This document shows, in pieces, positions 4,448 through 16,851 of a stretch of DNA of 37,107 bases. The notes under the pieces were generated by a model that had not been told where the DNA came from, searched no databases, and saw nothing but the letters and a program-made list of their open reading frames with translations. This stretch comes from Haloplasma contractile. GTDB taxonomy: Bacteria > Bacillota_I > Bacilli_A > Haloplasmatales > Haloplasmataceae. The position numbers and the translations under genes are program-made. The DNA is taken from assembly GCA_016841945.1 (NCBI GenBank), contig JAENYC010000035.1, positions 1 to 37,107 of the forward strand, given 5' to 3'. Position 1 is the stretch's first letter; the number at the start of each line of letters is the position of its first letter.

Positions 4448-4534
4448 AATATCTCCCATTTCAAAAAACTTATTATTATATGAATTATATCATCTATAAA
4501 TAGAATATACAATAATCTGTATATATATAAAAAA

Positions 4535-4552
4535 AAGACTGTTAAAAGTCTT
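4535..4552 (-). terminator. Displaced terminator of the tRNA operon
   Basis: On the minus strand AAGACT-TTTAAC-AGTCTT is followed by a run of eight T. It lies immediately beyond attL, in the position where the 3' end of tRNA-Phe would be if the prophage were removed. It therefore looks like the original terminator of the fMet-Asp-Phe tRNA operon, cut off by the integration. Confidence 0.75.
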
Positions 4553-4557
4553 AAATT

Positions 4558-4609
4558 AAATGGTGGTTCGGGGCAGAATCGAACTGCCGACACAAGGATT
4601 TTCAGTCCT
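4558..4609. repeat. attL: 52-bp copy of tRNA-Phe 3' region
   Basis: This is identical over 52 bases to 16691-16742. It contains the CCA end, T arm, variable region and anticodon-loop side of tRNA-Phe but lacks the 5' half, so it is a remnant and not a working tRNA. It marks the left prophage junction. Confidence 0.95.
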
Positions 4610-4622
4610 GCATATATTTATT

Positions 4623-4654
4623 CCTCTTACATAAACAGAATACAGTGTGAGAGG
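4623..4654 (+). promoter_or_regulatory. Leader hairpin covering the first phage ribosome site
   Basis: CCTCTTAC (4623-4630) can pair with GTGAGAGG (4647-4654), eight pairs with one wobble. The 3' arm contains the GAGAGG that serves as ribosome site for the TTG start at 4665, so folding would limit translation. The prediction is by eye; the arms could instead be recombinase arm sites. Confidence 0.4.
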
Positions 4655-4664
4655 ATTGATTAAA

Positions 4665-4826
4665 TTGAGGGTTTATTTAAAGGCTTCTAAATCAACTATT
4701 AATAAAAAAGAGAAACAATATGAAAAATATTGTTCTCGATTTTTAAATAGTGATAAGAGGCCTATTTCTTTTGAAAAATTTCTTTATCAGAATTTAGTTA
4801 ATTATTTAAAAAATCAATTTAAATGA
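4665..4826 (+). CDS. Small phage hypothetical protein (53 aa)
   Basis: This short ORF, MRVYLKASKSTINKKEKQ onward, starts at TTG with GAGAGG about 10 nt upstream and ends 17 bases before the next start. It is basic, with no membrane segment or recognised domain. It is the first gene inside the left end, so in the excised circle it would be the first gene downstream of attP. Its coding status rests on the start signal and continuity with the next genes. Confidence 0.5.
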   Translation: MRVYLKASKSTINKKEKQYEKYCSRFLNSDKRPISFEKFLYQNLVNYLKNQFK

Positions 4827-4843
4827 AAGAAAGGTGAGAAAGA

Positions 4844-5146
4844 GTGCCAGAAAACAGATTAAGGAAAGATGTTAAAAAGATATATGCTTATTTGAATGAT
4901 ATTGCATCAAAAATAATTAATAAATATCTCTTTGTTAAGGTAATACCTCGTTCAAAAACTATTTCATACAGATTTTGTTTATCTAATAATTTTAATCAGT
5001 TAAAAAGTAAGAATTATCAAATATTTTTAGATAAACGTGAATTACATCAATTATTAAATATTGAATATAATCAAGCTGAAAAGATTTTATACGATAAGAT
5101 AGTGAAATTATACAATCGAGATAAGGAAGAATTATATGCCTCGTGA
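4844..5146 (+). CDS. Phage hypothetical protein (100 aa)
   Basis: This 100-aa basic protein uses a GTG start with AAAGGTGAG about 6 nt upstream. No membrane segment is visible. The C-terminal half (LDKRELHQLLNIEYNQAEKILYDKIVKLYNRDKEELYA) looks like paired helices. The last 11 bases overlap the next gene, which points to translational coupling. Function is unknown; an early regulatory or DNA-binding role would fit its position but is not shown. Confidence 0.7.
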   Translation: MPENRLRKDVKKIYAYLNDIASKIINKYLFVKVIPRSKTISYRFCLSNNFNQLKSKNYQIFLDKRELHQLLNIEYNQAEKILYDKIVKLYNRDKEELYAS

Positions 5147-5342
5147 AATCATTTATGTTTATGAAGTAATTATTTTTCCAACTATTAAATTAATAGTTAA
5201 AACTGGGTTTGCTCCGGTTGAAATTGCTAAATTTATTGAATCTGGATATACAAAAAAAGTATTTTTAGAAAATGACGCAGAAATCTTTATAAATTTAGCA
5301 TCCGTTAAGTCATTTAAATTAATAGAAAAGTATCATAAATAA
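5136..5342 (+). CDS. Phage hypothetical protein (68 aa)
   Basis: This 68-aa protein overlaps the end of the preceding gene. It has a hydrophobic but strand-like N-terminal half (YVYEVIIFPTIKLIVKTG) and no clear membrane helix. The text FVEIAKFIESGYTKKVFL-like composition suggests a small alpha/beta domain. It ends just before hairpin element R1. No family is recognised. Confidence 0.65.
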   Translation: MPREIIYVYEVIIFPTIKLIVKTGFAPVEIAKFIESGYTKKVFLENDAEIFINLASVKSFKLIEKYHK

Positions 5343-5347
5343 AAATA

Positions 5348-5411
5348 TGTAGTACAAATATTTTATGATCAAGTTCTTCAGGAAAGGTCTTGGACGAAAA
5401 TTTGTACTACG
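5348..5411. repeat. Hairpin element R1 (64 bp)
   Basis: This 64-bp element starts TGTAGTACAAAT and ends ATTTGTACTACG, an 11-bp perfect terminal inverted repeat whose twelfth base does not match. The interior carries TTTATGATCA in the same register as R4 and R8 and a second small stem (CAAG/CTTG). It lies 5 bases after a stop codon and is followed directly by AGGTGAT. Confidence 0.88.
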
Positions 5412-5426
5412 AAATTAGGTGATAAC

Positions 5427-5591
5427 ATTATTGTTCAAGTTGAATTTTTTGGAATTAATATGTATTTATCTGAAGTAGATGAAGAGAATAGATTATTAAA
5501 ATATAAAGCTGATAAAGAGAAAGCAATCAAATTTAAGTCAAAAGATGAAATAGATAAACTATCAATATTATCTAAATATCTAATTGTATAA
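5427..5591 (+). CDS. Small phage hypothetical protein with probable ATT start
   Basis: This 43-54-aa ORF lies alone between R1 and R2. AGGTGAT (5417-5423) has no ATG, GTG or TTG at a workable distance in this frame. ATT at 5427 or 5430 is best placed, and the first ATG (5460) is 36 bases away. The codons upstream of 5460 (VQVEFFGIN) have the same usage as those after it. The protein is charged (YLSEVDEENRLLKYKADKE) with no recognised domain. Confidence 0.5.
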   Translation: MIVQVEFFGINMYLSEVDEENRLLKYKADKEKAIKFKSKDEIDKLSILSKYLIV

Positions 5592-5597
5592 AAAAAA

Positions 5598-5651
5598 TGT
5601 AGTACAAAAAAATACCTGGTATCCGGGTTAAATAATTAAATTTGTACTACA
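5598..5651. repeat. Hairpin element R2 (54 bp)
   Basis: TGTAGTACAAA and TTTGTACTACA form an 11-bp perfect terminal inverted repeat. The interior holds its own hairpin, ACCTGG-TAT-CCGGGT, with one G-T wobble. R2 lacks the GATC core found in most of the others. It starts 7 bases after the stop codon of the preceding gene. Confidence 0.88.
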
Positions 5652-5709
5652 AAAGGGGGGATAATTTTTAAAAAACAATTAATTAATTAAATTTTAAGGA
5701 GGTGAAAAA

Positions 5710-5901
5710 ATGGCAAAAGGTTATAGTTATGCGGAACGTGGTGCATATCATGCAAGAGTTGCAAAAAAAGGTTCAAAGAACCCAGATACTGGAAAAGAAT
5801 ATAGTCCAGAACAACGTGCATATTCGCGTGGTTGGTTAACAAAACAAAAACAAAGTAATAAAGCTTATAATTTTAATAAGAAATATAAAAAGAAAGCATA
5901 A
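5710..5901 (+). CDS. Small basic phage protein (63 aa)
   Basis: This 63-aa strongly basic protein follows an excellent ribosome site (AAGGAGGTG, 6 nt before ATG). The central segment GSKNPDTGKEYSPEQRAYSR gives it a compact conserved look, and the tail is Lys-rich (NKKYKKKA). There is no membrane segment, so it is not a standard filamentous coat protein. A nucleic-acid-binding role is plausible from charge alone. It is the only gene between R2 and R3. Confidence 0.8.
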   Translation: MAKGYSYAERGAYHARVAKKGSKNPDTGKEYSPEQRAYSRGWLTKQKQSNKAYNFNKKYKKKA

Positions 5902-5945
5902 TTAAACTATTAATATTGTACTTTATTTAAAAAAAATAATAAAAA

Positions 5946-5999
5946 TGTAGTACATGATTTTATGGCCATACTTGATGATCTATAGAATCATGTACTACA
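5946..5999. repeat. Hairpin element R3 (54 bp)
   Basis: TGTAGTACATGATT and its exact complement form a 14-bp terminal inverted repeat, the longest of the family. The interior contains the 10-bp palindrome TATGGCCATA and TTGATGATC. AGTAGGTGAT follows directly and serves the next gene. Confidence 0.9.
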
Positions 6000-6013
6000 A
6001 AGTAGGTGATTAA

Positions 6014-6256
6014 GTGAAAAAAAATCGGAAATATGCTGTTATTGGTAAACTATTTCAAAGTAAAAAAGTAGGTAATAACAAAATTGAATTACGTGAAGGA
6101 ATTAACAGCATGATAGATAATTCAAAAAATGTAAAAGTTTTAAGGGTTCTTTATCCAGATGGTCGTGTATGGTATGAAAAAACTCTTAAAAAAAATCAAG
6201 ATATTAGTAAATTGTTCTTGAAAGAAGAAAAATTTATTAAGAGTTCTCAATATTAA
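6014..6256 (+). CDS. Phage hypothetical protein (80 aa)
   Basis: This 80-aa basic protein starts at GTG after AGGTGAT. It looks like a small beta-rich domain (KYAVIGKLF, VKVLRVLYPDGRVWYEKTL) with a charged tail. It is the first gene of a tightly spaced five-gene block that runs to R4 and contains the candidate structural genes. No family is recognised. Confidence 0.72.
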   Translation: MKKNRKYAVIGKLFQSKKVGNNKIELREGINSMIDNSKNVKVLRVLYPDGRVWYEKTLKKNQDISKLFLKEEKFIKSSQY

Positions 6257-6278
6257 AATTTAAAGGGAGAGTGACAGT

Positions 6279-6803
6279 ATGTCAGAAAAACAAACTCAAC
6301 AAAAAGAAGTTAAAGAAAATAAGGAAGTAAAATCAAAAACAAGTAAAAAAGAAAATGTAAAAACAGAAGAATTTAAAAAAATAACTGATTTAACAGATGA
6401 TGAGATTAAAAATTTACCTCGTATTTCAGCTATTATAAGAAAACGTGAAAATAAAAGAAGTAAAAATATATTTTATGAAATCGAAGTTCGATTTAATGAA
6501 TATTTGAAAATGAAAACTAATCTTACTGAAACTAGATTTAATTTAATGAAGTTGAAATTAGGATTGGATTTTTCTAAAGCTGAAGAAACATTACGTGTTC
6601 CTGTTCGTCTTGTTAAAGGTCTACGTAAAGATGATAGTGAATATCATCAAGTTGAATTGATATTGGGTAAAGATGTTTATGAAACAGATATATTCTTTAA
6701 ATCTGATGAATTGGAATTATTACAATTAACAATTCCTAATATTAAGTTTGAAGTAAGACCTGAAAAGATTAATAATTTAGATTTAGATGGTTTTGAACAA
6801 TAA
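6279..6803 (+). CDS. Phage protein, possible ssDNA-binding protein (174 aa)
   Basis: The first 50 residues are low-complexity Lys/Glu. From about residue 50 on the protein looks like a beta-barrel (PRISAIIRKRENKRSKNIFYEIEVRF, VRLVKGLRKDDSEYHQVELIL). Filamentous phages encode an ssDNA-binding protein near the structural genes, and the size and strand pattern would fit, but no defining motif is seen, so this is a guess. The ribosome site is GGGAGAGTGACAG before ATG, almost the same leader as that of the gene at 14690. Confidence 0.6.
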   Translation: MSEKQTQQKEVKENKEVKSKTSKKENVKTEEFKKITDLTDDEIKNLPRISAIIRKRENKRSKNIFYEIEVRFNEYLKMKTNLTETRFNLMKLKLGLDFSKAEETLRVPVRLVKGLRKDDSEYHQVELILGKDVYETDIFFKSDELELLQLTIPNIKFEVRPEKINNLDLDGFEQ

Positions 6804-6823
6804 ATTGGTGGTGATAAATTTTT

Positions 6824-7432
6824 ATGAATACAGATTATGTAACATATTCTGATTCACAAAAAATTAATTATTATTCGAATCGTGTTAATGATATGTCTTT
6901 AACTAAAAAGCAACGTGGATATGCAAAGTATCGAATAAGTGTTTTAAAGAATAAATCTAAAAAGAATAAAACAATTGATATTTTATTTAAAAAGGATTTA
7001 ACTAATAATTTTAAGAAAAATAATAAAGAAATGAAAAAATTGAGAAATAAAGTTTCTTATGATGATATACATCAATTTAATAAAAAAAGAAAGCAATATA
7101 AAAAGCAAAAATTAAAAATGATTAATGATTATTTAAAACAAAACTATGTATTTGATTCGGAATTAATTTACAATGAGGATAATTTTGAAAAACCTAAATA
7201 CTTAGCAAATAATGAAGATGTATATCAATTATTAGATGATTTTTTAAAACATAATAAACAATATCAAAAAATTGTTTATAACGAATTATTTTTTGAAAAT
7301 AAGATGAATCGATTTGATGATCATACAGCTAAAGAAAAAGCTGTTAATCGATTAAAACATGAGTTAGGTGTAATGAATATTAAAGATATGTCATTAGAAA
7401 ATGTTTTTAAAATATTAAAAAATAAAGGATAG
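6824..7432 (+). CDS. Lys-rich phage hypothetical protein (202 aa)
   Basis: This 202-aa, strongly basic, helix-rich protein contains long Lys/Asn/Gln stretches (KKRKQYKKQKLKMINDYLKQ) and no membrane segment. GGTGGTGAT lies about 9 nt before ATG, and the next gene starts 10 bases after its stop. It sits between the candidate ssDNA-binding protein and the secreted Ig-like protein. A DNA-binding or assembly role is possible; no family is recognised. Confidence 0.7.
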   Translation: MNTDYVTYSDSQKINYYSNRVNDMSLTKKQRGYAKYRISVLKNKSKKNKTIDILFKKDLTNNFKKNNKEMKKLRNKVSYDDIHQFNKKRKQYKKQKLKMINDYLKQNYVFDSELIYNEDNFEKPKYLANNEDVYQLLDDFLKHNKQYQKIVYNELFFENKMNRFDDHTAKEKAVNRLKHELGVMNIKDMSLENVFKILKNKG

Positions 7433-7442
7433 GTGATAAAAT

Positions 7443-9065
7443 TTGAAAAAAATATTTTCTGTTTATTTTATTTATTTATTTATATTTGTAGTGCTGTTTA
7501 GTTTTACAATGAATCAAAATGTATCAGCTGCAACATATTCTGATTATAATTTAGTTCCAGTAGGTGATAGAACCTATGTTGATTATCCTTCATTAACTGA
7601 TATGTATATAAATGGACAGGATTTATCTTTAGGTGGTATGACTTATGAATGGTTTGTAGATGGTTCATATGATATGTTTGGTTTTGAAGTTTATGGTGTA
7701 GAAGGAACTACAATACAAGGTTTATACGATACAATAAATTATACTAATCAAGAAATTGGCACAGGTATTTTTACATTAGAAACTGATGGTTTTTATGGAT
7801 TTACATTAAAAAAAGATAATGTTACTTTGTTTACATATACACCTGATGAAGAAGATCCAGTTAATCCATTTATTTATGATACTGCTTATTATAAATTTTA
7901 TTATGTTAATTATCAAGAAGTTCTTCCAGATCAAACACCTGTGTTAAATGGTGAAACTGCTTTTGTTACAAATGTTGATAGTCCTTATACTGTAACTGAA
8001 ATTCAATCACATTTAACTGCTATTGATGATGTTGATGGTGATATTACAAATCAAATAGTAGTTGAAGAAGACAATTATACTACTTATATGAATACTATAG
8101 GTGATTATACTATTGTGTTTAGTGTTACTGATAGTGCTGGTAATAAAGCAACATTGACAGTAAATGTTCTTGTTAGAGATATTTCTGAACCAGTTCTTGC
8201 TGGTCAAAGTGAATATACACAATCTATGTCAAACTTATTAGATGTAAATACAATAAAAAGTGCATTAACTGTTACTGATAATTGTGATAATGGTTTACCT
8301 ATTGTTATTGAATCAGATAATTATACTCCTAATTATGATAGAACTGGTGTATATGCAATTACTTTTAAAGCAACTGATAATTCTGGGAATGTAGGTACTT
8401 ATGTTGTAAATGTTACGGTTGTTGATGATATAAATCCAACCATATCTGGACCTACTACAATCGTAAAAAATAATACAGAAGTTTTGACAGTGTCTGAAGT
8501 AAAAGCACAATTAACAGCTAATGACAATAAAGATGGTATTATTACTGAAAACATTGTTGTAAAAACTGATAATTATACTGGTAATGGACACATAACTGGT
8601 GATTATACTATTGTGTTTGAAGTTCAAGATAGTTCAGGTAATAAAACAACTCATACGACAACTATATCTGTTATGGATAATATTCCACCAGTTTTTTATA
8701 CAGATAATTATTATATTAGTGTATCTCAATCAATTTCATTAACCTTACAAGATATAATTGATATTCTAACCGCTACTGGACAAATAGAAGTTACAACACA
8801 AACTTATATAACAACTTTAAGTAATGAATATGAGGGAAATGAAACTAAAGTAGGTGTATATGCTGTAAGTCTTGAAGTTAAAGACCAAAGTGGTAATGAA
8901 GAAATAATTAATTCAGCAATAAAAGTATTACAAGATAATACTAATGACGTTGAATTAGAACCTGAAGATACATCTATTGTATGGTATCAATATATTTGGA
9001 ATGTATTTGTTTGGATATGGGAATTAATAGTTAAAATATTTAATTGGATAATAAATTTGTTTTAA
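7443..9065 (+). CDS. Secreted Ig-like repeat protein, candidate phage adsorption protein
   Basis: This 540-aa protein has a signal peptide (residues 1-30, ending NQNVSAA), a unique domain to about 160, then about four tandem Ig-like domains of the DUF5011 / Cry22Aa type (about 165-245, 246-330, 331-410, 411-495), with repeats such as IGDYTIVFSVTDSAGNKAT and DNYT. The C-terminus is a Trp-rich hydrophobic helix (VWIWELIVKIFNWIINLF) that can anchor it in the membrane. N-terminal receptor domains plus a C-terminal anchor match the layout of filamentous phage pIII-type adsorption proteins. It starts at TTG after AGGTGAT. Domain calls are by eye; the role is inferred from layout and position before the ATPase. 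Confidence 0.8.
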   Translation: MKKIFSVYFIYLFIFVVLFSFTMNQNVSAATYSDYNLVPVGDRTYVDYPSLTDMYINGQDLSLGGMTYEWFVDGSYDMFGFEVYGVEGTTIQGLYDTINYTNQEIGTGIFTLETDGFYGFTLKKDNVTLFTYTPDEEDPVNPFIYDTAYYKFYYVNYQEVLPDQTPVLNGETAFVTNVDSPYTVTEIQSHLTAIDDVDGDITNQIVVEEDNYTTYMNTIGDYTIVFSVTDSAGNKATLTVNVLVRDISEPVLAGQSEYTQSMSNLLDVNTIKSALTVTDNCDNGLPIVIESDNYTPNYDRTGVYAITFKATDNSGNVGTYVVNVTVVDDINPTISGPTTIVKNNTEVLTVSEVKAQLTANDNKDGIITENIVVKTDNYTGNGHITGDYTIVFEVQDSSGNKTTHTTTISVMDNIPPVFYTDNYYISVSQSISLTLQDIIDILTATGQIEVTTQTYITTLSNEYEGNETKVGVYAVSLEVKDQSGNEEIINSAIKVLQDNTNDVELEPEDTSIVWYQYIWNVFVWIWELIVKIFNWIINLF

Positions 9066-9078
9066 AGGTGTTGGTTAG

Positions 9079-10212
9079 ATGTTAAAAACCAAATATAAAA
9101 TATTATTTATAATTACATTGATTCTAGGGGTATTTTTTACCTCTAGAATTAGTGTTAATGCAAACATAACAACATATGAAATATATAATTATAATGATTT
9201 ACCATATGGATATGGTGAAGTAAATATAGTAACTGTTAATCCTAATGAAAATGAATATGATATATATTTTGTTATGAATGATAATAGTGTTCAATATGTA
9301 AGAAAGTCTACTGGTGTTCCAGCTTGTTATTATCATGAGAAAGATTATAGTATTACATGGAAAGTTGAAGATGATGAAAATAATATAAAAAGAATAATTG
9401 TAGATTTTTTTGAGTCAGATGGAAGAAATATTAAATGGGAATTAACTAGTGGTAAATATTTAGGTAAAGATATAATTGATATTCCAGTTAAAAAATTATC
9501 TAAAGAGCCATATTTTCCTTCTTTATTAGGTACTCCACATTATAAACATTTTGTACATTTTAATACTGATGTACAAATTGATGAATTATATCAAGTTGAT
9601 ATAGAGTTTACTACATATGAAATGTATTTGTTTTTTAAAACAAATAGAAAAGATCATACTGTATCAATTAAAAATGAATTAATTGAATATGATAATAATA
9701 TTTTTAATTCATTGACTGATTGGATACATGGTAATCAAACATATACAGAATATACAATTCAAGAAGATACTGATTATGATTGGAAAGTAGAATATTATGA
9801 AGATGTTGATAGAGTTCATGTTGAAGATCTTGTAATTATTAAATTATATTATGTTACTGATGGAAAATATTATGAAGATCCTGTTAATTCAACTCCAATA
9901 TCAGAACCTATAGGTGGTATTGATATAGGTGAATTAGATAATATAAAAGAAAAATTACAAGATATTATTTCATGGTTTAAAACTAATGGAAATTCTATTA
10001 TATTAGTTGTTGTTGCATTTTTTGTTACAACATTATTAACTGCTTTATTACCATTTGTAATTAGTGTAATTAATATAATTTTAAAATGTATTGTCAGTAT
10101 TATTAAAGGTATTATATTAATTTTAACATTACCATTTAAATTAATAATTGGTTTATTTTCAATATTTAGTAGTTTTAATAAAAAACAAAAATTAAATTAT
10201 AAAAAATTGTAG
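9079..10212 (+). CDS. Secreted/membrane phage protein with C-terminal helices
   Basis: This 377-aa protein has a signal peptide (IITLILGVFFTSRISVNA), a long Tyr/Asp/Asn-rich extracellular region, and a C-terminal block of about three hydrophobic helices (residues about 300-365) ending in a basic tail. A protein with membrane helices immediately before the pI/Zot ATPase occupies the usual place of the minor virion protein pVI, but this one is much larger. Its stop codon TAG (10210-10212) is bases 3-5 of element R4, so the repeat begins exactly at the gene end. Confidence 0.75.
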   Translation: MLKTKYKILFIITLILGVFFTSRISVNANITTYEIYNYNDLPYGYGEVNIVTVNPNENEYDIYFVMNDNSVQYVRKSTGVPACYYHEKDYSITWKVEDDENNIKRIIVDFFESDGRNIKWELTSGKYLGKDIIDIPVKKLSKEPYFPSLLGTPHYKHFVHFNTDVQIDELYQVDIEFTTYEMYLFFKTNRKDHTVSIKNELIEYDNNIFNSLTDWIHGNQTYTEYTIQEDTDYDWKVEYYEDVDRVHVEDLVIIKLYYVTDGKYYEDPVNSTPISEPIGGIDIGELDNIKEKLQDIISWFKTNGNSIILVVVAFFVTTLLTALLPFVISVINIILKCIVSIIKGIILILTLPFKLIIGLFSIFSSFNKKQKLNYKKL

Positions 10213-10271
10213 TACATATAATTTATGATCATGTTCTTCATGGAAACGTAGCTTAAAAAATATGTACTACA
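10208..10271. repeat. Hairpin element R4 (64 bp)
   Basis: TGTAGTACATA and its complement form the termini, extended by one more pair outward (10207/10272). The interior has TTTATGATCA in the same register as R1 and R8 and a TCATG-TTCTT-CATGG hairpin. The upstream gene terminates inside it. R5 follows after only 12 bases, with no gene between. Confidence 0.9.
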
Positions 10272-10283
10272 AATAATAAATAA

Positions 10284-10337
10284 TGTAGTACAAAGAGAAC
10301 CGGAGTTCCTGGAATGATCAATTGAATTTGTACTACA
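10284..10337. repeat. Hairpin element R5 (54 bp)
   Basis: An 11-bp perfect terminal inverted repeat (TGTAGTACAAA) encloses CCGG-AGTTC-CTGG and ATGATCAATT. The first 40 bases are identical to R7 at 14613. It lies directly upstream of the ribosome site of the ATPase gene. Confidence 0.9.
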
Positions 10338-10357
10338 TAAAGGTAGGTGATAAATAT

Positions 10358-11668
10358 ATTACTAAATTAATTATTTTAATTGTTGTTAATTTGTTATTAA
10401 TTATACCTTTGTTTAGTTTTAAAGGTTTTAGAAAATATTATGAATATCGATTTAATTCTACTATTATTTTTTTTACATATGCTTTAGGTTACTTAATAGC
10501 TATCATAGGTAAAATTCGTATAGGTAAAACAACTCTTATGAGTGGTTTGTCTCACGTAGCACAAATAGTAATACAAAATCGATTGAATAGTAAAATGGAA
10601 TTTATTCGTAATATATTTTATTTTATTGATTTTCAAGAATTTGAACAAATAGTTTTATATTGTTATTTAGAACAAAAATTAAATTTAAAAGATATTACAG
10701 ATTTTATAATTGATTATTATAAATTAGATTCTAATGAGTTATATTTTAATTTTTTAGAATTTGAAGTTATTAAAGATTTAGTATTTGATTATATTGATGC
10801 TTTTTATAAGATTTACATAAGAAATCAATATGTTTATTCAAAAACTCGATTTTATTCACATATTACAAATAAAACAAATATTCAATATAATCTTAATTGG
10901 ACAAAAATTAAAGAAGCTTTTAAGAAAAAAGAGTATATAATTGAAGATGATATGGTTGAGTTAATAGATGAAGCAACTGATGAATTAGGTGCGTCCTTCC
11001 AGTATGAAGATATGAAAGATGAATCAGGAGCTAAAGAATATAGACGTAAGTATGGTCATATTCATCGAGAAAGAAATTATATGATAATTTCTAAACAAGA
11101 TGCATCAGATGAAATAAAGCGATATAGAACACTAACACAATCGAATATACAAATAATTGAAAAAGTTGATGTTGTTGGTAACTTTAGATTGAGTAATAAA
11201 TTGATTAATTTAATTAAAAATTTTGTTAATCATTTTCATAAGTTTAAATGGAATTGTATTGCAATATTTAAAGGAATGATATATTCAGAAGATAGAAATA
11301 AATATATTGAAGAAAAATTTAAAGGTAAATATATAGGTAAATCATTAATTAATTATTTAACTTATATAGAAAAATTCCTATTTTCAAAATCATATTGTAA
11401 GTTTAAATGTCGATTATATGATAATGCACAAGATGTTGGTAAGATTGATGAAAAATATTATATAGAATATAAACTAGTAATTCCTTTACAATTTTGCTTT
11501 GGCTGCTTTTCTACTCATGAATATAGTTATATTCAAAATGAACTTATAAATAATTCAAAATTAAAGTTTGAAGATTTAGAACAATCATTGATGTTTATTG
11601 ATCCAAATAAAAAATATTTTGAAGATGATAGTAATAGTTTTGGTGGTGATGTTGATTATGAGTATTAG
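10358..11668 (+). CDS. Zot/pI-like P-loop ATPase for phage assembly-export
   Basis: From the proposed ATT start the protein has 436 residues. An N-terminal hydrophobic segment is followed by Walker A GKIRIGKTT (about 51-59), Walker B VELIDEA (about 200-206) and an RNYMIISKQDASDEIKRYR segment like the arginine/sensor region of Zot proteins. In inoviruses this membrane ATPase (pI, Zot) drives virion assembly and extrusion and is the hallmark gene. The start is odd: AGGTGAT at 10345-10351 has ATT at 10358 in frame, while the only upstream TTG codons lie inside R5 without a ribosome site. It overlaps the next gene by 11 bases. An FtsK-like coupling ATPase is the alternative. Confidence 0.8.
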   Translation: MTKLIILIVVNLLLIIPLFSFKGFRKYYEYRFNSTIIFFTYALGYLIAIIGKIRIGKTTLMSGLSHVAQIVIQNRLNSKMEFIRNIFYFIDFQEFEQIVLYCYLEQKLNLKDITDFIIDYYKLDSNELYFNFLEFEVIKDLVFDYIDAFYKIYIRNQYVYSKTRFYSHITNKTNIQYNLNWTKIKEAFKKKEYIIEDDMVELIDEATDELGASFQYEDMKDESGAKEYRRKYGHIHRERNYMIISKQDASDEIKRYRTLTQSNIQIIEKVDVVGNFRLSNKLINLIKNFVNHFHKFKWNCIAIFKGMIYSEDRNKYIEEKFKGKYIGKSLINYLTYIEKFLFSKSYCKFKCRLYDNAQDVGKIDEKYYIEYKLVIPLQFCFGCFSTHEYSYIQNELINNSKLKFEDLEQSLMFIDPNKKYFEDDSNSFGGDVDYEY

Positions 11669-11879
11669 AGAATTAATATTTTTACTTGTTGGAACTGCTG
11701 CAGCATTTATTGTTGCATGGTTTATAATTGTAAGAAAATTTATTTTATTTATTAATAATGAAAGAGAACATAACGAAGCCTATCGTCTGAATGCAAAAAA
11801 TGATTATAATAAAATTGCTCCAAATCATGAAAATATCAATGATTTAGGAGATGAAGAACATGAACAAATTGAATCATGA
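11658..11879 (+). CDS. Small single-span membrane phage protein (73 aa)
   Basis: This 73-aa protein has one N-terminal membrane helix (ELIFLLVGTAAAFIVAWFIIV) followed by a basic patch and an acidic C-terminal tail (DLGDEEHEQIES). ATG 11658 was chosen because it overlaps the end of the ATPase gene after a G-rich ribosome site; an earlier in-frame ATG lies deep within that gene. It overlaps the start of the Rep gene. It is one of few candidates for a small virion or coat protein, but its polarity differs from standard inovirus coat proteins. Confidence 0.65.
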   Translation: MSIRELIFLLVGTAAAFIVAWFIIVRKFILFINNEREHNEAYRLNAKNDYNKIAPNHENINDLGDEEHEQIES

Positions 11880-13098
11880 TAAGATGGGTGGGTTAGGTAT
11901 AACCCACCTAAATTATACAAAATTAGATTCAAATGAGCATATTAAGGCTTCTATTGACTATTTTTCTGTTACTTTTGATAAAATTAAGTATTCATATAAA
12001 AATGGTCAATATTTAATTAAAAAAGATTCTTATAATGATTTAGATGTTTTGTTTAATATGCTTACTGCTGATAAAGAATGGTATGAGTATCAGCATGATT
12101 ATGGAATGCATGGATATAAACATTGTATTATTATTGGTGAGTTTATACGTGTACAGTTTTATGGACCAAAAAATGGAAATGGATATCATACTACAATGAT
12201 AGATATGTCAGGTTCTGCATGTAGAGAATTTCTTGGCCGTGGTGGGAATTATTTAGAATTTATTTCATTAATGATTAAATGGGATGCTAAATGTACTCGT
12301 TTTGATTTAGCCATTGATGATCATAGTGGTGAAATATGTGATATTTATGACTTATGGAAAAATTATATTGAACCAACTAATTATACTTCACCATTTCATG
12401 ATGCATCACCAGTTATGCCTAAAAATTGGCGTAAAGAAACATATTCAGGTTTTGGAATATATTTTGGCAGAACTGGTTCTAATCAATTACTTATTTATGA
12501 TAAAAAATTAGAAAGAGAAAACGCTGGAAAATCAGTATTTGATTATAAAGTATGGTATCGTTATGAAATGAGATTTAAAGGTGGAAAAGCAACAACTATA
12601 ATGAAGAATTTTTTAATAAATCTATTGAAATCACAAGAAGATTTTAATCAATTTGCATTTGAATGTCTATATGGACTTTTAGACGTAAAAATTAGAAATA
12701 ATAATGATTCTAATAAAAATCGTTGGAAAACTGCTCCTATGTGGTTAGATTTTTTAAATCAAGTAAAAAAACTAAAAATAGTAAATGAATATAAACCAGA
12801 ACAAACAATAGAAAAAAAAGAAAAATGGATAATTGATAATGTAGATAAAACTTTAGCTAAATTGTATTTAACAAGAAAAAATTTTTTATTAGATAGATTA
12901 AAAAATATTGGACTTAAAATTAATGATTTTAAGGATAAAGATTTAGAAGAAGTAAATAAAGATTTAAAAAAGAATGATTTACCAATTTTAACAAAAAAAG
13001 ATTTAGAAGAAATAGCAGGCTCTCTTGTAGAATCAAATGAGTTTGAAGTATATGAAGATGAATCAGAAGAGTTTGATGAAAATAGTTTACCATTTTAA
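11860..13098 (+). CDS. Rolling-circle replication initiator (Rep_trans family)
   Basis: This 412-aa protein matches the pattern of Rep_trans replication initiation factors. KCTRFDLAIDD (about 144-154) supplies acidic metal-site residues, YFGRTGSNQLLIYDKKLE (about 201-218) contains the YDK motif with the likely nicking tyrosine, and WYRYEMRFKG follows. Such proteins nick the double-strand origin and start rolling-circle replication of phages and plasmids; the MobT relaxases of ICEs belong to the same family. The C-terminal 150 residues are charged and helical. ATG 11860 has GGAG 9 nt upstream, whereas ATG 11851 abuts it. The origin is not identified. Confidence 0.88.
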   Translation: MNKLNHDKMGGLGITHLNYTKLDSNEHIKASIDYFSVTFDKIKYSYKNGQYLIKKDSYNDLDVLFNMLTADKEWYEYQHDYGMHGYKHCIIIGEFIRVQFYGPKNGNGYHTTMIDMSGSACREFLGRGGNYLEFISLMIKWDAKCTRFDLAIDDHSGEICDIYDLWKNYIEPTNYTSPFHDASPVMPKNWRKETYSGFGIYFGRTGSNQLLIYDKKLERENAGKSVFDYKVWYRYEMRFKGGKATTIMKNFLINLLKSQEDFNQFAFECLYGLLDVKIRNNNDSNKNRWKTAPMWLDFLNQVKKLKIVNEYKPEQTIEKKEKWIIDNVDKTLAKLYLTRKNFLLDRLKNIGLKINDFKDKDLEEVNKDLKKNDLPILTKKDLEEIAGSLVESNEFEVYEDESEEFDENSLPF

Positions 13099-13112
13099 AG
13101 AGGTGAATATTT

Positions 13113-13457
13113 ATGAAAATTCAAGAAATATTAAATGACCATCGTTTAAGATTGTTAAAAAAATATGTTGATCATGCTTTAGATGTATCAAAATCATATT
13201 ATCAAAGTATTGATGAAACTAATGATTTTGATAAAAAAATATCAATTACAAAAAAATATCATCATTGGTCAAGACGATTACATTTATATATTTTGTTTTA
13301 TGATAAACGTAGAGAGTATTTAGAAAAATTAAATAATGAAGAATTAAGAAAATATCGTTTAAGACATAAAGAATTATTAGAATCATTAAAATTAAATTGT
13401 TTTAAAATTAATAATCAAAAAAATGTAGATTATTCTAATATGAATATATCAATGTAG
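13113..13457 (+). CDS. Basic helical phage hypothetical protein (114 aa)
   Basis: This 114-aa protein is rich in Lys, Arg, His and Tyr with probable long helices (YHHWSRRLHLYILFYDKRREYLEKLNNEELRKYRLRHKELLE is split here by several charged turns). AGAGGTGAAT precedes its ATG. The TAG stop (13455-13457) is supplied by element R6. It may assist the replication protein upstream, but no family is recognised. Confidence 0.7.
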   Translation: MKIQEILNDHRLRLLKKYVDHALDVSKSYYQSIDETNDFDKKISITKKYHHWSRRLHLYILFYDKRREYLEKLNNEELRKYRLRHKELLESLKLNCFKINNQKNVDYSNMNISM

Positions 13458-13506
13458 TACATATTCAATTCTTGATCAACTGCACCTGAAGAAAATATGT
13501 ACTACA
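13453..13506. repeat. Hairpin element R6 (54 bp)
   Basis: TGTAGTACATATT and its exact complement form a 13-bp terminal inverted repeat. The interior contains the palindrome TTGATCAA and a TTCTT/AAGAA pairing. It supplies the stop codon of the preceding gene and is followed at once by AAGGAG. Confidence 0.9.
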
Positions 13507-13519
13507 AAAAGGAGTGATA

Positions 13520-13795
13520 ATTATTAATTCTGTTAATTATTTAGAATTACAACAAAGATTATTTGATATGGAAGACCCACCAGTAAAATATAAGAAACAA
13601 GTATTTGCTAAAAAATCTCATGTATGTGAAAAATGTAGATGTGAAATACATCCCAATGAATTATGTTGGTGGTGGAAACCAAGACCTAAATATAATAAAT
13701 TGAGTAAGAAAAAAAGATTTTATAAATGGCGTACTCGGTGTATGGATTGTGAACCTAAAAGACAATCTGAACTAGATTTATATTATGAAAGGTGA
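13520..13795 (+). CDS. Cys-rich zinc-ribbon-like phage protein
   Basis: This protein of about 91 aa carries two cysteine pairs, HVCEKCRCEIHPNELC and RCMDCEPKR, around a basic aromatic stretch (WWWKPRPKYNK), which suggests a structural zinc site and nucleic-acid contact. AAGGAG (13509-13514) directly abuts a GTG at 13514, too close to use it, so ATT at 13520 or 13523 is the likely start. Its stop overlaps the ribosome site of the HNH gene. It might act with that endonuclease; no named family is recognised. Confidence 0.62.
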   Translation: MINSVNYLELQQRLFDMEDPPVKYKKQVFAKKSHVCEKCRCEIHPNELCWWWKPRPKYNKLSKKKRFYKWRTRCMDCEPKRQSELDLYYER

Positions 13796-13800
13796 TTTTT

Positions 13801-14400
13801 ATGAATACTTTGAGTTTTTCTAAAGAAGAATTAGATCAAGAAATTTGGAAATTAATTACATGGTCGAATGGTACATATTATATTTCTAATTTAGGACGAG
13901 TTAAGAAAAAGTATAAAAATTATGAAAGAATACTAAAACCATACTTAAAAACTAATAAAAGAAAATATTTATATATTAAAATATTTTTAGATAATAATAC
14001 AAAAATACAAAATAATAAACGAAAATATAAGCAAAAAATGATTCATCAATTAGTAGCTGAATTTTTCCTTCCAGTTAAACCAGGTATTGATTATGTTTTA
14101 TTTCATAAAAATGGTGTATTAACAGATAATAGAGATTTTAATTTAACTTGGATAACAAAAAAGGAATTAGGACGTATAACTGGTGGAAAAACAAAGAGAG
14201 TTAAAGGAATATTAAAAATTGATCCTAAAACTAATAAAATAATTAATTATTATAAAACTAGTCGCGAAGCTGGAAAAGCAAATTATTGTTCATATCAAAC
14301 TATTTTAGATTCATGTAATAGAAAGAATAAAAAACGAATTAATTGTACTGGTTTTATATTTGCCTGGGATACAGGAAATCAAAAATATAAATGGAGTTGA
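13801..14400 (+). CDS. HNH homing-type endonuclease with NUMOD4
   Basis: This 199-aa protein opens with a NUMOD4 motif (EIWKLITWSNGTYYISNLGRV, ending near ILKPY). An HNH region follows (MIHQLVAEFFLP then FHKNGVLTDNRDFNLTWITKKE), and then a NUMOD1-like DNA-binding repeat (ILKIDPKTNKIINYYKTSREAGKA is its core, split around residue 150). These are modules of phage homing endonucleases that cut a recognition site and promote spread of their own gene. ATG 13801 was chosen, with AAAGGTGAT 5 nt upstream. It lies in the R6-R7 block. The target site is unknown. Confidence 0.85.
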   Translation: MNTLSFSKEELDQEIWKLITWSNGTYYISNLGRVKKKYKNYERILKPYLKTNKRKYLYIKIFLDNNTKIQNNKRKYKQKMIHQLVAEFFLPVKPGIDYVLFHKNGVLTDNRDFNLTWITKKELGRITGGKTKRVKGILKIDPKTNKIINYYKTSREAGKANYCSYQTILDSCNRKNKKRINCTGFIFAWDTGNQKYKWS

Positions 14401-14404
14401 TATT

Positions 14405-14617
14405 ATGTTTATTAAATTTAATAATAGTTTAATTAATATACTAGCAATTATGTCTATTGATATAAACAAAAATGATGTTATATTAATATATTCAAAATTA
14501 CATTGTCCTAAGAAAAAAGATGATGAGTGTTATATGACAATTGAAGAATATGAAACAGAAAAAGAAGCTCAATCAAGATTAAAAGAATTGGAATTAATAT
14601 TAATTAAAAAAATGTAG
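14405..14617 (+). CDS. Small phage hypothetical protein (70 aa)
   Basis: This 70-aa protein starts at ATG 14405, four bases after the HNH gene stop. It appears to be one small beta-sheet plus helix (IKFNNSLINILAIMSIDINK; ETEKEAQSRLKELELILIKK). The stop TAG (14615-14617) is bases 3-5 of R7. No family is recognised. Confidence 0.65.
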   Translation: MFIKFNNSLINILAIMSIDINKNDVILIYSKLHCPKKKDDECYMTIEEYETEKEAQSRLKELELILIKKM

Positions 14618-14666
14618 TACAAAGAGAACCGGAGTTCCTGGAATGATCAATTAATATTCTACTACA
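14613..14666. repeat. Hairpin element R7 (54 bp, right arm degenerate)
   Basis: The first 40 bases match R5 exactly. The right end reads ATTCTACTACA instead of TTTGTACTACA, so the terminal inverted repeat is broken at two positions. It supplies the stop codon of the preceding gene. Confidence 0.88.
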
Positions 14667-14689
14667 AAAATAGATTGGAGAGTGACAGA

Positions 14690-14983
14690 ATGTCAAAATC
14701 AAATGTATCAAGTATTAGATATACAGATGAAGTAAAAAAAATAATTGATTCAATAGAAGGTAATTCATTTTCGGATAAATTTCATTCATTGGTAGAATAT
14801 TGTTATAATAAAATACCATATTTAGAAAAAAAGGAAAAAGATATTTTAAATAGAATTGAAAATAGAAAATTAGAATTAAAAAGGATAAATGATAAAATTA
14901 ATTCAATGAATGATATTATTGATGATATTGATTCAATTCAATATGCAATAAAAAGATTAACTGAAGATATTAATAAAATGTAG
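14690..14983 (+). CDS. Coiled-coil phage hypothetical protein (97 aa)
   Basis: This 97-aa protein has GGAGAGTGACAGA before its ATG. The N-terminus (SNVSSIRYTDEVKKIIDS) resembles small DNA-binding or ribbon-helix-helix starts, and the rest is a predicted coiled coil (KKEKDILNRIENRKLELKRI). It is the only gene between R7 and R8, and its stop is supplied by R8. A regulator is possible; this is inferred from shape only. Confidence 0.65.
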   Translation: MSKSNVSSIRYTDEVKKIIDSIEGNSFSDKFHSLVEYCYNKIPYLEKKEKDILNRIENRKLELKRINDKINSMNDIIDDIDSIQYAIKRLTEDINKM

Positions 14984-15042
14984 TACAAAGATTTTATGAT
15001 CAAATTGTTCATCAAGTAGAAGCTTAGAATAATTGTACTACA
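14979..15042. repeat. Hairpin element R8 (64 bp)
   Basis: A 10-bp terminal inverted repeat (TGTAGTACAA) and TTTATGATCA in the same register as R1 and R4. It supplies the TAG stop of the preceding gene. It is the last copy, followed by a terminator and then the integrase gene. Confidence 0.88.
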
Positions 15043-15069
15043 ATTAAATTAAATAATATAATTATTAAA

Positions 15070-15094
15070 GGCTAGTATAACTAGTCTTTTTTTT
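15070..15094 (+). terminator. Terminator of the main phage operon
   Basis: GGCTAGT-ATA-ACTAGTC (one wobble pair) is followed by eight T. It separates the R1-R8 gene array from the integrase gene, so the integrase is probably a separate transcript. Confidence 0.85.
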
Positions 15095-15105
15095 AAGAAA
15101 AGGGA

Positions 15106-15141
15106 TTTCGCTACTATTTTTTATTTAATAATTAAGCGAAA
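15106..15141 (+). promoter_or_regulatory. Integrase leader hairpin next to ribosome site
   Basis: TTTCGCT (15106-15112) can pair with AGCGAAA (15135-15141). The 3' arm runs into AAAGGAAG, the integrase ribosome site, so pairing would partly hide it. This is a by-eye prediction. Confidence 0.4.
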
Positions 15142-15154
15142 GGAAGTATGAAAT

Positions 15155-16036
15155 ATGTTATTAGAATTAGCAATTAAAAAATATTTGAAAAATAGTAAAT
15201 TAATTAAAAGTATTGGTACTTATGACTATGAAAAAGGACATTTAAATTATTTGATTAAATATTTTTATTCAAAAAATCTTAATGAACTTGAAGATTTAAC
15301 AGAAAATGTTATTAATGAACTTATTGTTAATATGAGAAATGATAATTGTAAAAATATTACAATTAATAAAAGAATCAAATTATTAAAATCTGTTTTTGTT
15401 TATAATAACTATCATAATGATTATTTATTAAAATTTAAAAAATTAAAAGAAACAAAAAAGAGATTTGATTTATTAAAAGAAAATGATTTAAAAAAATTAT
15501 TAGAATATTTAGATACTTTAGATGAATCAAATCCTATATTATTAACAGAAAAAATAATTATATATTTATTTTTTGAAACTGGTATAAGAAGAAATGAAAT
15601 TTTAAATATTAAAATAAGTAATATTTGTTTAGATGAACAATTTATTTTATTAACTGAAACAAAAACTAAAGATGAAAGAGTTATTTATTTTACTCCAAGA
15701 TTGTTTAAATTATTAAGTAAATATTTAGATATTAATAATGATCATATATATCTATTGTGGAATTATCGAACTAATAAACGATTTACTGGTGATAACCTTA
15801 GAAGATTATTTGAAAAAATAAAACGTGAAACTAAAATAGTTAAATTACATCCGCATATGTTACGACATACATTTGCGACTTATTATTTAGAACGAGGTGG
15901 TAATTTAACTACACTTCAATCAGTTCTTGGTCATAATAATTTAAAAACTACTGAAATTTATTTGCATATGTCAATTAAACATCATAAAAAAAATTATGAA
16001 GATAATTTTACTGGTATTTATAATGATTTGAAATAA
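15155..16036 (+). CDS. int: Tyrosine site-specific integrase
   Basis: This 293-aa XerC/D-like tyrosine recombinase has a SAM-like core-binding domain (about 1-100) and a complete catalytic set: Arg145 in TGIRRNE, Lys near 170-172 in ETKTKDER, His234-x-x-Arg237 in HPHMLRHTF, His260 in VLGHNN and the nucleophile Tyr269 in TEIYLHM. The N-terminal arm-binding domain of lambda-type integrases is missing. It presumably joins attP to the tRNA-Phe 3' end. No excisionase is recognised. ATG follows AAAGGAAG. A second role on the R1-R8 elements is conceivable but unproven. Confidence 0.95.
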   Translation: MLLELAIKKYLKNSKLIKSIGTYDYEKGHLNYLIKYFYSKNLNELEDLTENVINELIVNMRNDNCKNITINKRIKLLKSVFVYNNYHNDYLLKFKKLKETKKRFDLLKENDLKKLLEYLDTLDESNPILLTEKIIIYLFFETGIRRNEILNIKISNICLDEQFILLTETKTKDERVIYFTPRLFKLLSKYLDINNDHIYLLWNYRTNKRFTGDNLRRLFEKIKRETKIVKLHPHMLRHTFATYYLERGGNLTTLQSVLGHNNLKTTEIYLHMSIKHHKKNYEDNFTGIYNDLK

Positions 16037-16041
16037 TAATT

Positions 16042-16073
16042 AAAAAGCCTTTGGATTATTCCTCAGGCTTTTT
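16042..16073. terminator. Bidirectional terminator between int and the small minus-strand gene
   Basis: AAAAAGCCT (16042-16050) and AGGCTTTTT (16065-16073) pair perfectly, with an inner GGA/TCC. A and T runs flank both sides, so it can stop the integrase transcript and the convergent repressor transcript. Confidence 0.88.
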
Positions 16074-16247
16074 ATTATTTTTTATATTTACTATTTTAAT
16101 TATTTTTTGAAAATTATTATCTTTTTTTATTTTATTTAATCCTTCATCAGATACTTTTGACATCATTTTTTGTCCATTTTTCTTTATCCAATATACTATA
16201 TAATCAGCTTTCATTTTTTTGAATAAATTAATTGTTTCTTTGTTCAT
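16056..16247 (-). CDS. Small hypothetical protein downstream of repressor (63 aa)
   Basis: This 63-aa basic protein starts at ATG 16247 with AAAGGAGG 5 nt upstream; a longer frame lacks a ribosome site. It lies 20 bases after the XRE gene in the same direction, so the two are probably one transcript. Segments such as MKADYIVYWIKKNGQ suggest a small folded domain. A partner of the repressor is possible; function is unknown. Confidence 0.62.
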   Translation of the reverse strand: MNKETINLFKKMKADYIVYWIKKNGQKMMSKVSDEGLNKIKKDNNFQKIIKIVNIKNNKKPEE

Positions 16248-16267
16248 ATATCCTCCTTTCAATTTTT

Positions 16268-16582: not shown

Positions 16583-16617
16583 ATTTTTCCCTCCTTTTTT
16601 ATAAAAAATGCAAAAAA

Positions 16618-16659: not shown

Positions 16660-16690
16660 TAAAGTAAGAACTAATATTGTAAGAGGGATA

Positions 16691-16742
16691 AAATGGTGGT
16701 TCGGGGCAGAATCGAACTGCCGACACAAGGATTTTCAGTCCT
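16691..16742. repeat. attR: 52-bp tRNA-Phe 3' region
   Basis: This is identical to 4558-4609. It spans the CCA end to the anticodon stem of the intact tRNA-Phe plus three bases beyond the CCA, so the gene was rebuilt on the right side of the element. Confidence 0.95.
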
Positions 16743-16769: not shown

Positions 16770-16772
16770 ATA

Positions 16773-16848: not shown

Positions 16849-16851
16849 ATT

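What the first reader, a model, noticed from the sequence alone, without database searches (positions are those of the whole stretch)
5348..15042. Family of eight structured intergenic elements confined to the prophage
R1-R8 all begin TGTAGTACA and end TGTACTACA or a one- to two-base variant. Each end is itself a pseudo-palindrome, TGTA-S-TACA. Terminal inverted repeats are 10-14 bp and, in several copies, compensating bases extend the arms differently (R3 with TGATT, R6 with TATT, R4 with TA), so pairing is kept while sequence varies. Most contain an internal GATC core and a second small hairpin. No copy is seen in the host flanks. No T run follows, so they are not intrinsic terminators. No named repeat family comes to mind.
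Basis: seen in the sequence. Interest (0 to 1): 0.9.

Follow-up and report, generated by a model that had tools for sequence, protein, structure and literature searches.

The report
Repeated hairpin elements inside one prophage
A virus lying dormant in a bacterial chromosome carries eight copies of a short two-ended DNA element set between its genes, a family not found anywhere else we looked; it may be a phage-specific control or mobility element, but what it does is unproven.

Summary
Eight elements (54 nt x5, 64 nt x3) lie at gene borders of a tRNA-Phe-integrated, inovirus-like prophage. Their 9-bp ends TGTAGTACA...TGTACTACA are nearly invariant (2 of 144 bases differ), interiors vary widely, and bases inside the ends pair within elements more than between them (28 or 144 of 40320 permutations). 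No paired copy lies elsewhere in the 3.43-Mb genome. None is in a sibling prophage or a same-genus prophage. No comparable family turned up among pattern hits in IMG/VR and GTDB contigs or in a lossy model search of 395 class genomes.

New here: two exact lengths, 10 bp apart; GATC about 20 nt from one end in 7 of 8; probable insertion in both orientations; recent element-bounded copying (R5/R7); two copies in a junction that is tight in the relative.

Invariant palindromic ends with a variable interior favour recognition as DNA over RNA. My best, unproven reading is paired DNA recognition sites acting as dispersed operator-like elements (0.35). A phage-borne miniature mobile element is almost as likely (0.30). 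Cognate protein and function are not shown.

The parts
5348..5411 (+). element R1 (64 nt, GATC at 20; right end TGTACTACG)
5598..5651 (-). element R2 (54 nt, no GATC; reverse orientation by best alignment)
5946..5999 (-). element R3 (54 nt; 20-pair outer stem with two G-T pairs; reverse orientation by best alignment)
10208..10271 (+). element R4 (64 nt); supplies the TAG stop of the upstream ORF
10284..10337 (-). element R5 (54 nt), 12 nt after R4, identical to R7 over the first 40 nt; reverse orientation by best alignment
13453..13506 (+). element R6 (54 nt); supplies the upstream TAG stop
14613..14666 (-). element R7 (54 nt; right end TCTACTACA); supplies the upstream TAG stop; reverse orientation by best alignment
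14979..15042 (+). element R8 (64 nt); supplies the upstream TAG stop; followed by a terminator-like site at 15067-15089
4555..4609 (.). left attachment-site duplicate (3' part of tRNA-Phe)
   Evidence: family D6 (98% of 55 nt)
16688..16742 (.). right attachment-site duplicate, overlapping the intact tRNA-Phe gene 16694-16769
14690..14980 (+). 97-aa protein between R7 and R8, ribbon-helix-helix-like N-terminus (my reading) plus a long coil; candidate binder, unproven
   Evidence: no Pfam match above cut-off, only weak PHROG matches, no useful fold match
13801..14400 (+). NUMOD4-HNH endonuclease, between R6 and R7
11851..13098 (+). replication initiator (Rep_trans)
15155..16036 (+). tyrosine recombinase (phage integrase)

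Best explanation
A phage-specific DNA element made of two palindromic 9-bp protein-recognition sites in inverted order, 45 or 55 bp apart centre to centre, i.e. with a similar helical phase. A dimeric DNA-binding protein, most likely phage-encoded, binds both ends, and the pair works as a dispersed operator at gene borders, controlling read-through of the long one-way run of prophage genes. It would work like mycobacteriophage stoperators but with paired palindromic sites. Copies multiply inside the phage by copying the exact unit, and selection keeps ends and spacing while interiors drift.

Shown: anatomy, confinement within what was searched, end and length conservation, placement, absence from two related prophages, near-identity of R5 and R7. 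Inferred: a DNA-binding protein, its identity (the 97-aa protein at 14690-14980 is only the best-placed candidate), the copying mechanism and the transcriptional role.
For: Each end is a pseudo-palindrome with 2 of 144 bases changed while interiors differ: 28-30 of 46 identical within the 64-nt class, 9-20 of 36 between members of the 54-nt class other than R5/R7. Poorly alignable 54-nt members still share one length, and the other class is +10 bp. All eight lie at gene borders although my ORF set covers 90% of the prophage. No paired copy lies elsewhere in the genome. A GntR/FadR operator (DgoR IR1) contains the same TGTAGTACA word, so the word is credible as a dimer site on DNA (passages of PMC12288454). 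GATC starts at 19-22 from one end in 7 of 8. Dispersed repressor sites across a phage genome have precedent in stoperators (passages of PMC6550527).
Against: Operators do not need inner arms that pair, yet they pair. The centre bases are G on the left and C on the right in 8 of 8, which an independent pair of symmetric sites need not show. No TGTASTACA lies in the presumed immunity region beside the XRE repressor, so that repressor is an unlikely binder. The 97-aa protein has no good family or fold match, and its homologue in Dulem virus 51 comes without such elements. No excess of promoter-like sites (101 found, 119 in shuffles). A virus inverted repeat with the same end word sits in a presumed replication origin, which points elsewhere. 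Nothing here shows binding or regulation.
Confidence: 0.35

Rival explanations
1. A miniature mobile element of phages: a non-autonomous inverted-repeat unit that inserts at gene borders in either orientation, moved by an enzyme that recognises the ends, perhaps only on replicating or single-stranded phage DNA. Ends are kept because only intact copies move; interiors are lineage labels.
For: R5 and R7 share 40 identical leading bases, with different flanks from the element boundary outwards. R4 and R5 sit in the p9079/ATPase junction that is tight in the same-genus relative. The best of 128 orientation sets is four copies each way (445, against 415 all-forward, ranked fourth, and a mean of 335). 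Absent from both related prophages, so gained or lost since they parted. Several interior families with one type of end.
Against: No paired copy in 3.4 Mb of host DNA although that is the larger target. No transposase was recognised among the prophage proteins scanned and no parent transposon with these ends was found; two suggestive host pairs were looked at, one end lying in a resolvase gene and the other pair in a region without a transposase ORF of 100 aa or more. Target-site duplications cannot be judged in A-rich flanks. Exact length classes are not expected of a transposon relic (inference).
Confidence: 0.3
2. RNA hairpins between cistrons of the phage mRNA that set stability, processing or translation of the next gene.
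For: Seven of eight fold better than shuffles (RNA z -2.3 to -7.6). The arms pair beyond the repeat. Most sit a few bases after a stop codon and six have a Shine-Dalgarno-like GG or AGG within about 11 nt downstream (my reading).
Against: The stem sequence is invariant and the loop variable, the reverse of what I know of most protein-bound RNA hairpins. R7 does not fold better than its shuffles. No G-T over A-C bias (8 against 6). Minus strands fold about as well. Exact length is unexplained.
Confidence: 0.15
3. Single-strand recombination sites that work like integron attC: folded hairpins on phage ssDNA let a tyrosine recombinase gain, lose or reorder small genes.
For: Conserved ends, variable interior that keeps pairing near the ends, location at the 3' ends of genes with the stop codon inside the site in 4 of 8, one small ORF between R1/R2, R2/R3 and R7/R8, a tyrosine recombinase next after R8. 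p14405 lies elsewhere in the relative.
Against: The ends do not fit the attC R-box cores and no second conserved box shows in the alignments. Probable mixed orientation. The long R3-R4 and R5-R6 segments are not cassette-like. The recombinase is explained by tRNA integration. At R4/R5 the neighbouring genes are also neighbours in the relative, so the elements came or went without gene exchange.
Confidence: 0.1
4. Something else at the DNA level, for example replication, packaging or segregation sites of the phage.
For: Phage-confined; the phage has a rolling-circle type initiator. The archaeal virus APBV1 has, in its presumed origin region, a 19-nt perfect inverted repeat that begins TGTAGTACA and ends TGTACTACA around 68 nt; its function is stated as unclear (passage of PMC12841604).
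Against: Eight origins or packaging signals would be unusual; no ParA or partition gene was recognised in the family searches. APBV1 is unrelated as far as I know, with one copy and another length; the shared 9 bp may be chance.
Confidence: 0.1

Closest known systems
REP/REPIN (GTAG-tagged) repeats
   Same: Short extragenic palindromes, often as inverted dimers with a spacer; T-GTAG...CTAC-A ends here; mostly downstream of genes (PMC3733652, abstract and one section read).
   Different: In REPs the GTAG tag is unpaired; here it is inside the stem. REPs are high-copy in host chromosomes; here none in the host.
T4-type PeSL cassettes (promoter early stem-loop)
   Same: Repeated stem-loops in phage genomes linked to gene shuffling (only passages of a citing paper seen, PMC4503421; primary papers not held).
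   Different: PeSLs combine a promoter with a stem-loop/terminator motif (titles seen); here no promoter excess and no T run on the + strand.
Stoperators of Cluster A mycobacteriophages
   Same: Dispersed phage sites linked to one repressor (PMC6550527 passages).
   Different: Asymmetric sites, predominantly one orientation relative to transcription; here inverted pairs of palindromes at two fixed spacings, probably both orientations, no site at the repressor gene.
Integron attC sites
   Same: Sequence similarity confined to the ends, variable interior (PMC2727003 passages).
   Different: Other end sequences, no L boxes seen, no integron context.
APBV1 (Clavaviridae) origin-region inverted repeat
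   Same: Same 9-bp ends, TGTAGTACA...TGTACTACA, as a perfect inverted repeat between genes (PMC12841604 passage).
   Different: One copy, 19-nt arms around 68 nt, archaeal virus, no stated relation; function unclear there too.
MITEs
   Same: Terminal inverted repeats, non-coding, several copies.
   Different: No parent transposon found, no provable target-site duplication, strict lengths, not in the host.

Membership tests
REP/REPIN | unpaired GTAG tag beside the palindrome | tested here: not met
   GTAG is bases 2-5 of the paired arm in all 8 copies
REP/REPIN | many copies in the host chromosome | tested here: not met
   0 paired copies outside the prophage (lossy, agrees)
REP/REPIN | dedicated RAYT (Y1) transposase | tested here: inconclusive
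   host has 3 Y1_Tnp matches (2 over the cut-off, 1 near full length) on contigs C25, C71 and C68, none on the prophage contig; not linked to the elements
MITE | terminal inverted repeats | tested here: met
MITE | target-site duplication | tested here: inconclusive
   A-rich flanks, short ambiguous matches only
MITE | parent transposon with the same ends | tested here: inconclusive
   24 other TGTASTACA in the genome; only the two closest spaced pairs (C24, C60) were looked at and show no transposon; imperfect ends were not searched at transposon spacing
Integron attC | R-box heptamers (AAC/GTT cores) at the ends | tested here: not met
   ends are TGTAGTACA/TGTACTACA (cores as)
Integron attC | conserved extrahelical bases in the folded strand | not tested
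   no comparison of bulged bases was made
Integron attC | integron integrase | not tested
   only Phage_integrase and SAM-like matches seen; IntI-specific features were not examined
Stoperator | sites scattered over the phage genome and confined to it | tested here: met
   single 9-mers also occur elsewhere in the genome (24 of 38)
Stoperator | a site at the repressor or early promoter | tested here: not met
   no TGTASTACA, up to 1 mismatch, in 4610-4843 or 16625-16690
Stoperator | bound by the phage repressor | not testable with these tools
   needs a binding assay
Stoperator | one predominant orientation relative to transcription | tested here: inconclusive
   ends symmetric; interiors best aligned 4+/4- but with modest cross-family signal
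PeSL | early promoter plus stem-loop | tested here: inconclusive
   101 promoter-like sites against 119 in shuffles; host promoter type unknown
Intrinsic terminator | stem followed by a T run | tested here: not met
   no T run after any copy on the + strand; none among the 5 sites, whose loop limit of 3-8 nt would miss these long loops anyway; minus strand not excluded for copies with an A run on the left
Known RNA family | match to an Rfam model | tested here: not met
   only tRNA reached its gathering score in 4400-17000

The most novel reading that the evidence does not exclude
The elements are hairpin recombination or insertion sites of an ssDNA phage: they move and exchange while the phage genome is single-stranded, recognised by fold plus the TGTASTACA ends, and let the phage pick up, lose and reorder small genes - an integron-like cassette system (or a miniature transposon restricted to ssDNA) inside an inovirus-like prophage.
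Probability: 0.13. Interest if true: 0.9.

Novelty: new variant of a known kind. Interest (0 to 1): 0.55.

Why it matters
If the elements are control sites, they show another way for a temperate phage to silence or meter a whole run of genes from its gene borders. If they are mobile, they are a miniature element that lives in a phage and spares the host, which would make the question of how small phages shuffle genes directly testable. Either way the family is compact, sequence-defined and easy to test.

Tried and rejected
Other places for the ends. The exact-end pattern gave 63 stretches in IMG/VR and 102 in GTDB contigs; the matched sequences are listed. Of 185 pairs in these 165 stretches, 70 lie wholly inside a reading frame of 100 aa or more. 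15 stretches hold two or more pairs and none has more than two places over 300 bp apart. Only parts of long contigs are held, and I looked at genes around the pair in L008, L012, L019, L142 and L208 alone. What I saw: Cytophagia RDZP contigs with a 48-nt palindrome, often near contig ends; a Rahnella cluster beside a large replication-type gene (L142); 56-58% GC phage contigs, of which L012 has its matches in reading frames; L008/L019 in another phage. L172/L208 in the same genus (52 nt; 31.8 bits, E 0.00025) lies between genes beside an IS3-type transposase gene and its inner arms do not pair; I treat it as chance, but it is the strongest match outside. CM hits L290/L291 lie in actin-like (MreB-type, my reading) coding sequence, L290 by its ORF, L291 by likeness to it. 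L247 is a 27-bp hairpin upstream of an IS3-type transposase gene.

Lossy searches. The whole-genome CM searches score few candidates per genome (150 of about 3000, 13): one search did not list the L208 match that and the exact pattern found. Absence there is weak; the exact patterns carry the claim. The loose pattern found 8 places, all in this prophage (one an R4/R5 overlap; R7 is missed), while the same pattern read backwards found 3.

Relatives. Five protein queries of IMG/VR found no close phage (one search gave 23 distant integrases, not examined for elements). Interior motifs gave 0 hits. DNA searches of phages and plasmids gave only weak short matches. L203-L207, L209-L212, L237, L239, L240, L245 and L246 hold no exact-k-mer hairpin family of three or more; L238 gave only copies of one duplicated block and L241 one local 8-mer cluster. 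The 97-aa protein had weak hits in two other class genomes (E 2e-4 and 5e-4; 395 searched), not followed.

A possible remnant at the L237 junction (TGTAATATATATGATC, similar to the start of R4) is noted but not counted. AlphaFold of the 97-aa protein as a monomer without alignment gave two helices (pLDDT 85); the fold search gave one match at E 8.6. One ORF (p11660) was translated in the wrong frame and left out. ORF borders are partly hand-set, so its probability (2.1e-10) is only indicative. A note says that elements flank the terminase gene of L012; both matches in fact lie in reading frames, corrected here.

In print: one search looked for the two end words (208 papers, 20 listed; passages of two read). 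Searches looked for attC, the guessed host genus Haloplasma (recalled, not established), miniature elements, stoperators, inovirus repeats, REPINs and PeSLs; I saw listings only, apart from the passages and sections cited. None that I saw described this element. That is not proof of absence.


Full report
OBSERVATION. The left end is TGTAGTACA in 8 of 8; the right end is TGTACTACA in 6 of 8, with one changed base in R1 and one in R7, so 2 of 144 end bases differ from consensus. Nine end pairs (8 elements plus one R4/R5 overlap) were counted in the prophage against a mean of 0.005 in 200 order-1 Markov simulations; the best-recurring exact 9-bp inverted pair occurs 6 times here and 1 to 3 times in 100 simulations.

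HOST ELEMENT. The prophage lies between a 55-nt duplicate of the 3' part of tRNA-Phe (4555-4609 and 16688-16742, 98% identical). It encodes a Rep_trans initiator, an ATPase-like protein with a P-loop motif (my reading; no Pfam match above cut-off), an Ig-domain surface protein, a NUMOD4-HNH nuclease, a tyrosine recombinase and an XRE-type repressor. 'Inovirus-like' is an inference. Weak Rep similarity to Dulem and bajarodino virus records (Dulem virus 68 is listed under Inoviridae), the g2p-type Rep in the relative L237 and a homologue of the 97-aa protein in Dulem virus 51 (Inoviridae) speak for it.

ANATOMY. Lengths are 54 (R2, R3, R5, R6, R7) or 64 (R1, R4, R8). Gapless interior identity is 28-30 of 46 within the 64-nt class and 33 of 36 for R5/R7. 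Among the other 54-nt pairs it is 9 to 20 of 36, with R2 close to R5 (20) and R7 (19) and the rest 9-12. So about four interior families (64-nt; R2/R5/R7; R3; R6) share one type of end, and three of them share one exact length; gapped local alignment does find short likenesses between some families (for example R3/R8). GATC is in 7 of 8 elements, while the prophage has 19 in all. Among 128 orientation sets the best one places R1, R4, R6, R8 forward and R2, R3, R5, R7 reversed (445; all-forward 415 ranked fourth; mean 335). The same relative orientations come out best when R7, R4 and R8 are left out (111.5 against 95.5 all-forward). In that set GATC starts at 19-22 in all seven. The cross-family signal is modest and some single pairs prefer the other orientation (R3 with R4 and R8, R1 with R5), so mixed orientation is probable, not proven.

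PAIRING. Column 10 pairs in 8 of 8 as A-T (5) or T-A (3), column 11 in 6 of 8. The summed contiguous extension is 21 against a permutation mean of 8.25 (144 of 40320 permutations as high); pairs in the first ten inner positions number 45 of 80 (28 of 40320 as high). With R1, R7 and R8 removed it is 16 against 6.2 (4 of 120). RNA and DNA folds beat shuffles in 7 of 8, R7 failing (RNA z -0.25, DNA z -1.38). The minus strand folds about as well. Appositions at inner positions 10-20: 49 Watson-Crick, 8 G-T, 6 A-C of 88, so no strand preference. Shuffles keep no relatedness, so its covariation score alone is not decisive.

PLACEMENT. My ORF set covers 90% of the prophage and no element lies inside an ORF except for the 5 bases that give the upstream TAG stop in R4, R6, R7 and R8 (ORF ends). 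The mechanical ORF list starts the ATPase ORF at a TTG inside R5; I take that start as too early, because the RBS and the L237 homologue point to a later one. Six elements are followed within about 11 nt by a GG- or AGG-containing Shine-Dalgarno-like stretch (my reading).

DISTRIBUTION. Paired ends occur only here in the 3.43-Mb genome, even with the first and last base of each end dropped and either centre base allowed (8 places, all here; backward control 3). TGTASTACA alone occurs 38 times, 14 here, 24 elsewhere. A covariance model with the outer 11 pairs finds the eight at E 5.2e-8 or better; in the 8 genomes of the order the best listed match outside is E 0.047, and 395 genomes of the class gave two other matches, in coding sequence. 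Both searches score only a part of their candidates and missed a match that one search shows: L208 10115-10166 in the same genus (31.8 bits, E 0.00025), a single copy between genes whose inner arms do not pair. A sibling prophage in the same genome (L203, Rep 73% identical) and a same-genus prophage (L237; ATPase 55%, integrase 53%) have no such element. At the p9079/ATPase junction L237 has about 32 nt between the stop and the likely start where the window has R4 and R5, so the elements were inserted, or lost, without exchange of the neighbouring genes.

HOW IT LIKELY WORKS. An invariant palindromic end, a strict spacing and a variable interior are what I would expect of protein recognition on duplex DNA, and the word TGTAGTACA is inside a known GntR/FadR operator (PMC12288454, passages). 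That favours paired DNA sites; placement at gene borders favours control of read-through. Against this, the inner arms pair and the centre bases are G then C in every copy, which favours a fold or a copying mechanism that mends the arms. Element-bounded copying (R5/R7), the tandem R4/R5 and probable mixed orientation favour mobility, but no paired copy is found in 3.4 Mb of host DNA. I therefore hold 0.35 for paired operator-like sites, 0.30 for a miniature mobile element, 0.15 for RNA hairpins, 0.10 for attC-like sites and 0.10 for other DNA roles. The binder is unknown. The 97-aa protein at 14690-14980 is placed between R7 and R8, reads like a ribbon-helix-helix protein with a coil (my reading; two helices in the model) and has no match at E 0.01 in the relatives, as the elements have none, but the same holds for several other genes.

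COMPARISON. It resembles REPINs, MITEs, PeSLs, stoperators and attC sites in one or two features each, and fails or could not be shown to meet a defining feature of every one (membership table). In print the same 9-bp ends bound one inverted repeat in the presumed origin region of the archaeal virus APBV1, function unclear (PMC12841604, passage); I take this as a lead, probably chance. I rate the finding a new variant of a known kind: a dispersed, phage-confined inverted-repeat element. A categorically new system is not excluded.

LIMITS. All evidence on covariation comes from eight copies in one prophage. The metagenome collection could not be scanned. Contigs with pattern hits were held in part.

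Noticed in passing
window 5427, 10358, 13523: Three genes directly after elements R1, R5 and R6 have no ATG at Shine-Dalgarno distance but an in-frame ATT; for the ATPase this ATT lies close to the start of its L237 homologue. Possible ATT start codons (for the third, GTG 13514 is an alternative). Read by eye.
   Followed up: partly
L237, p9079/ATPase junction near 11270-11290: The tight junction of the same-genus prophage holds TGTAATATATATGATC, similar to the start of R4 with a gap; remnant or chance.
   Followed up: partly
L203 (G000:C53:1-20000), about 8379-16659 and 3387-3530: Second related prophage or remnant in the same genome: Rep 73% identical, other ATPase, plus a separate Rep C-terminal fragment at 3387-3530; no match to the window's integrase at E 0.01.
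   Followed up: partly
L245 (Dulem virus 51) 4718-5023: Homologue of the window's 97-aa protein directly after a recombinase gene in an inovirus; similar short N-terminal region plus long charged region.
   Followed up: partly
PMC12841604 (APBV1), no window coordinates: A 19-nt perfect inverted repeat with the same 9-bp ends lies in the presumed origin region of an archaeal virus; function stated as unclear.
   Followed up: partly
L208 5398-5457 and 14377-14436: Small clusters of TGTACAACA repeats in a same-genus region with integrase and IS3-type genes.
   Followed up: no
L247 around 1485-1545: A 27-bp hairpin containing TGTAGTTAGTACAAAT upstream of an IS3-type transposase gene in the same genus.
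   Followed up: partly
L071, L075, L078 and other RDZP01 loci: A 48-nt palindrome TGTAGTACACACTTTTAGTGTGTCGAC... recurs, often near contig ends, in one Cytophagia MAG; a repeat family that shares the end word.
   Followed up: no
L118 704-1352 and L145 7279-7514: Regularly spaced (mostly 128-bp) TGTAGTACA...TGTACTACA units in a Bacteroidales MAG.
   Followed up: no
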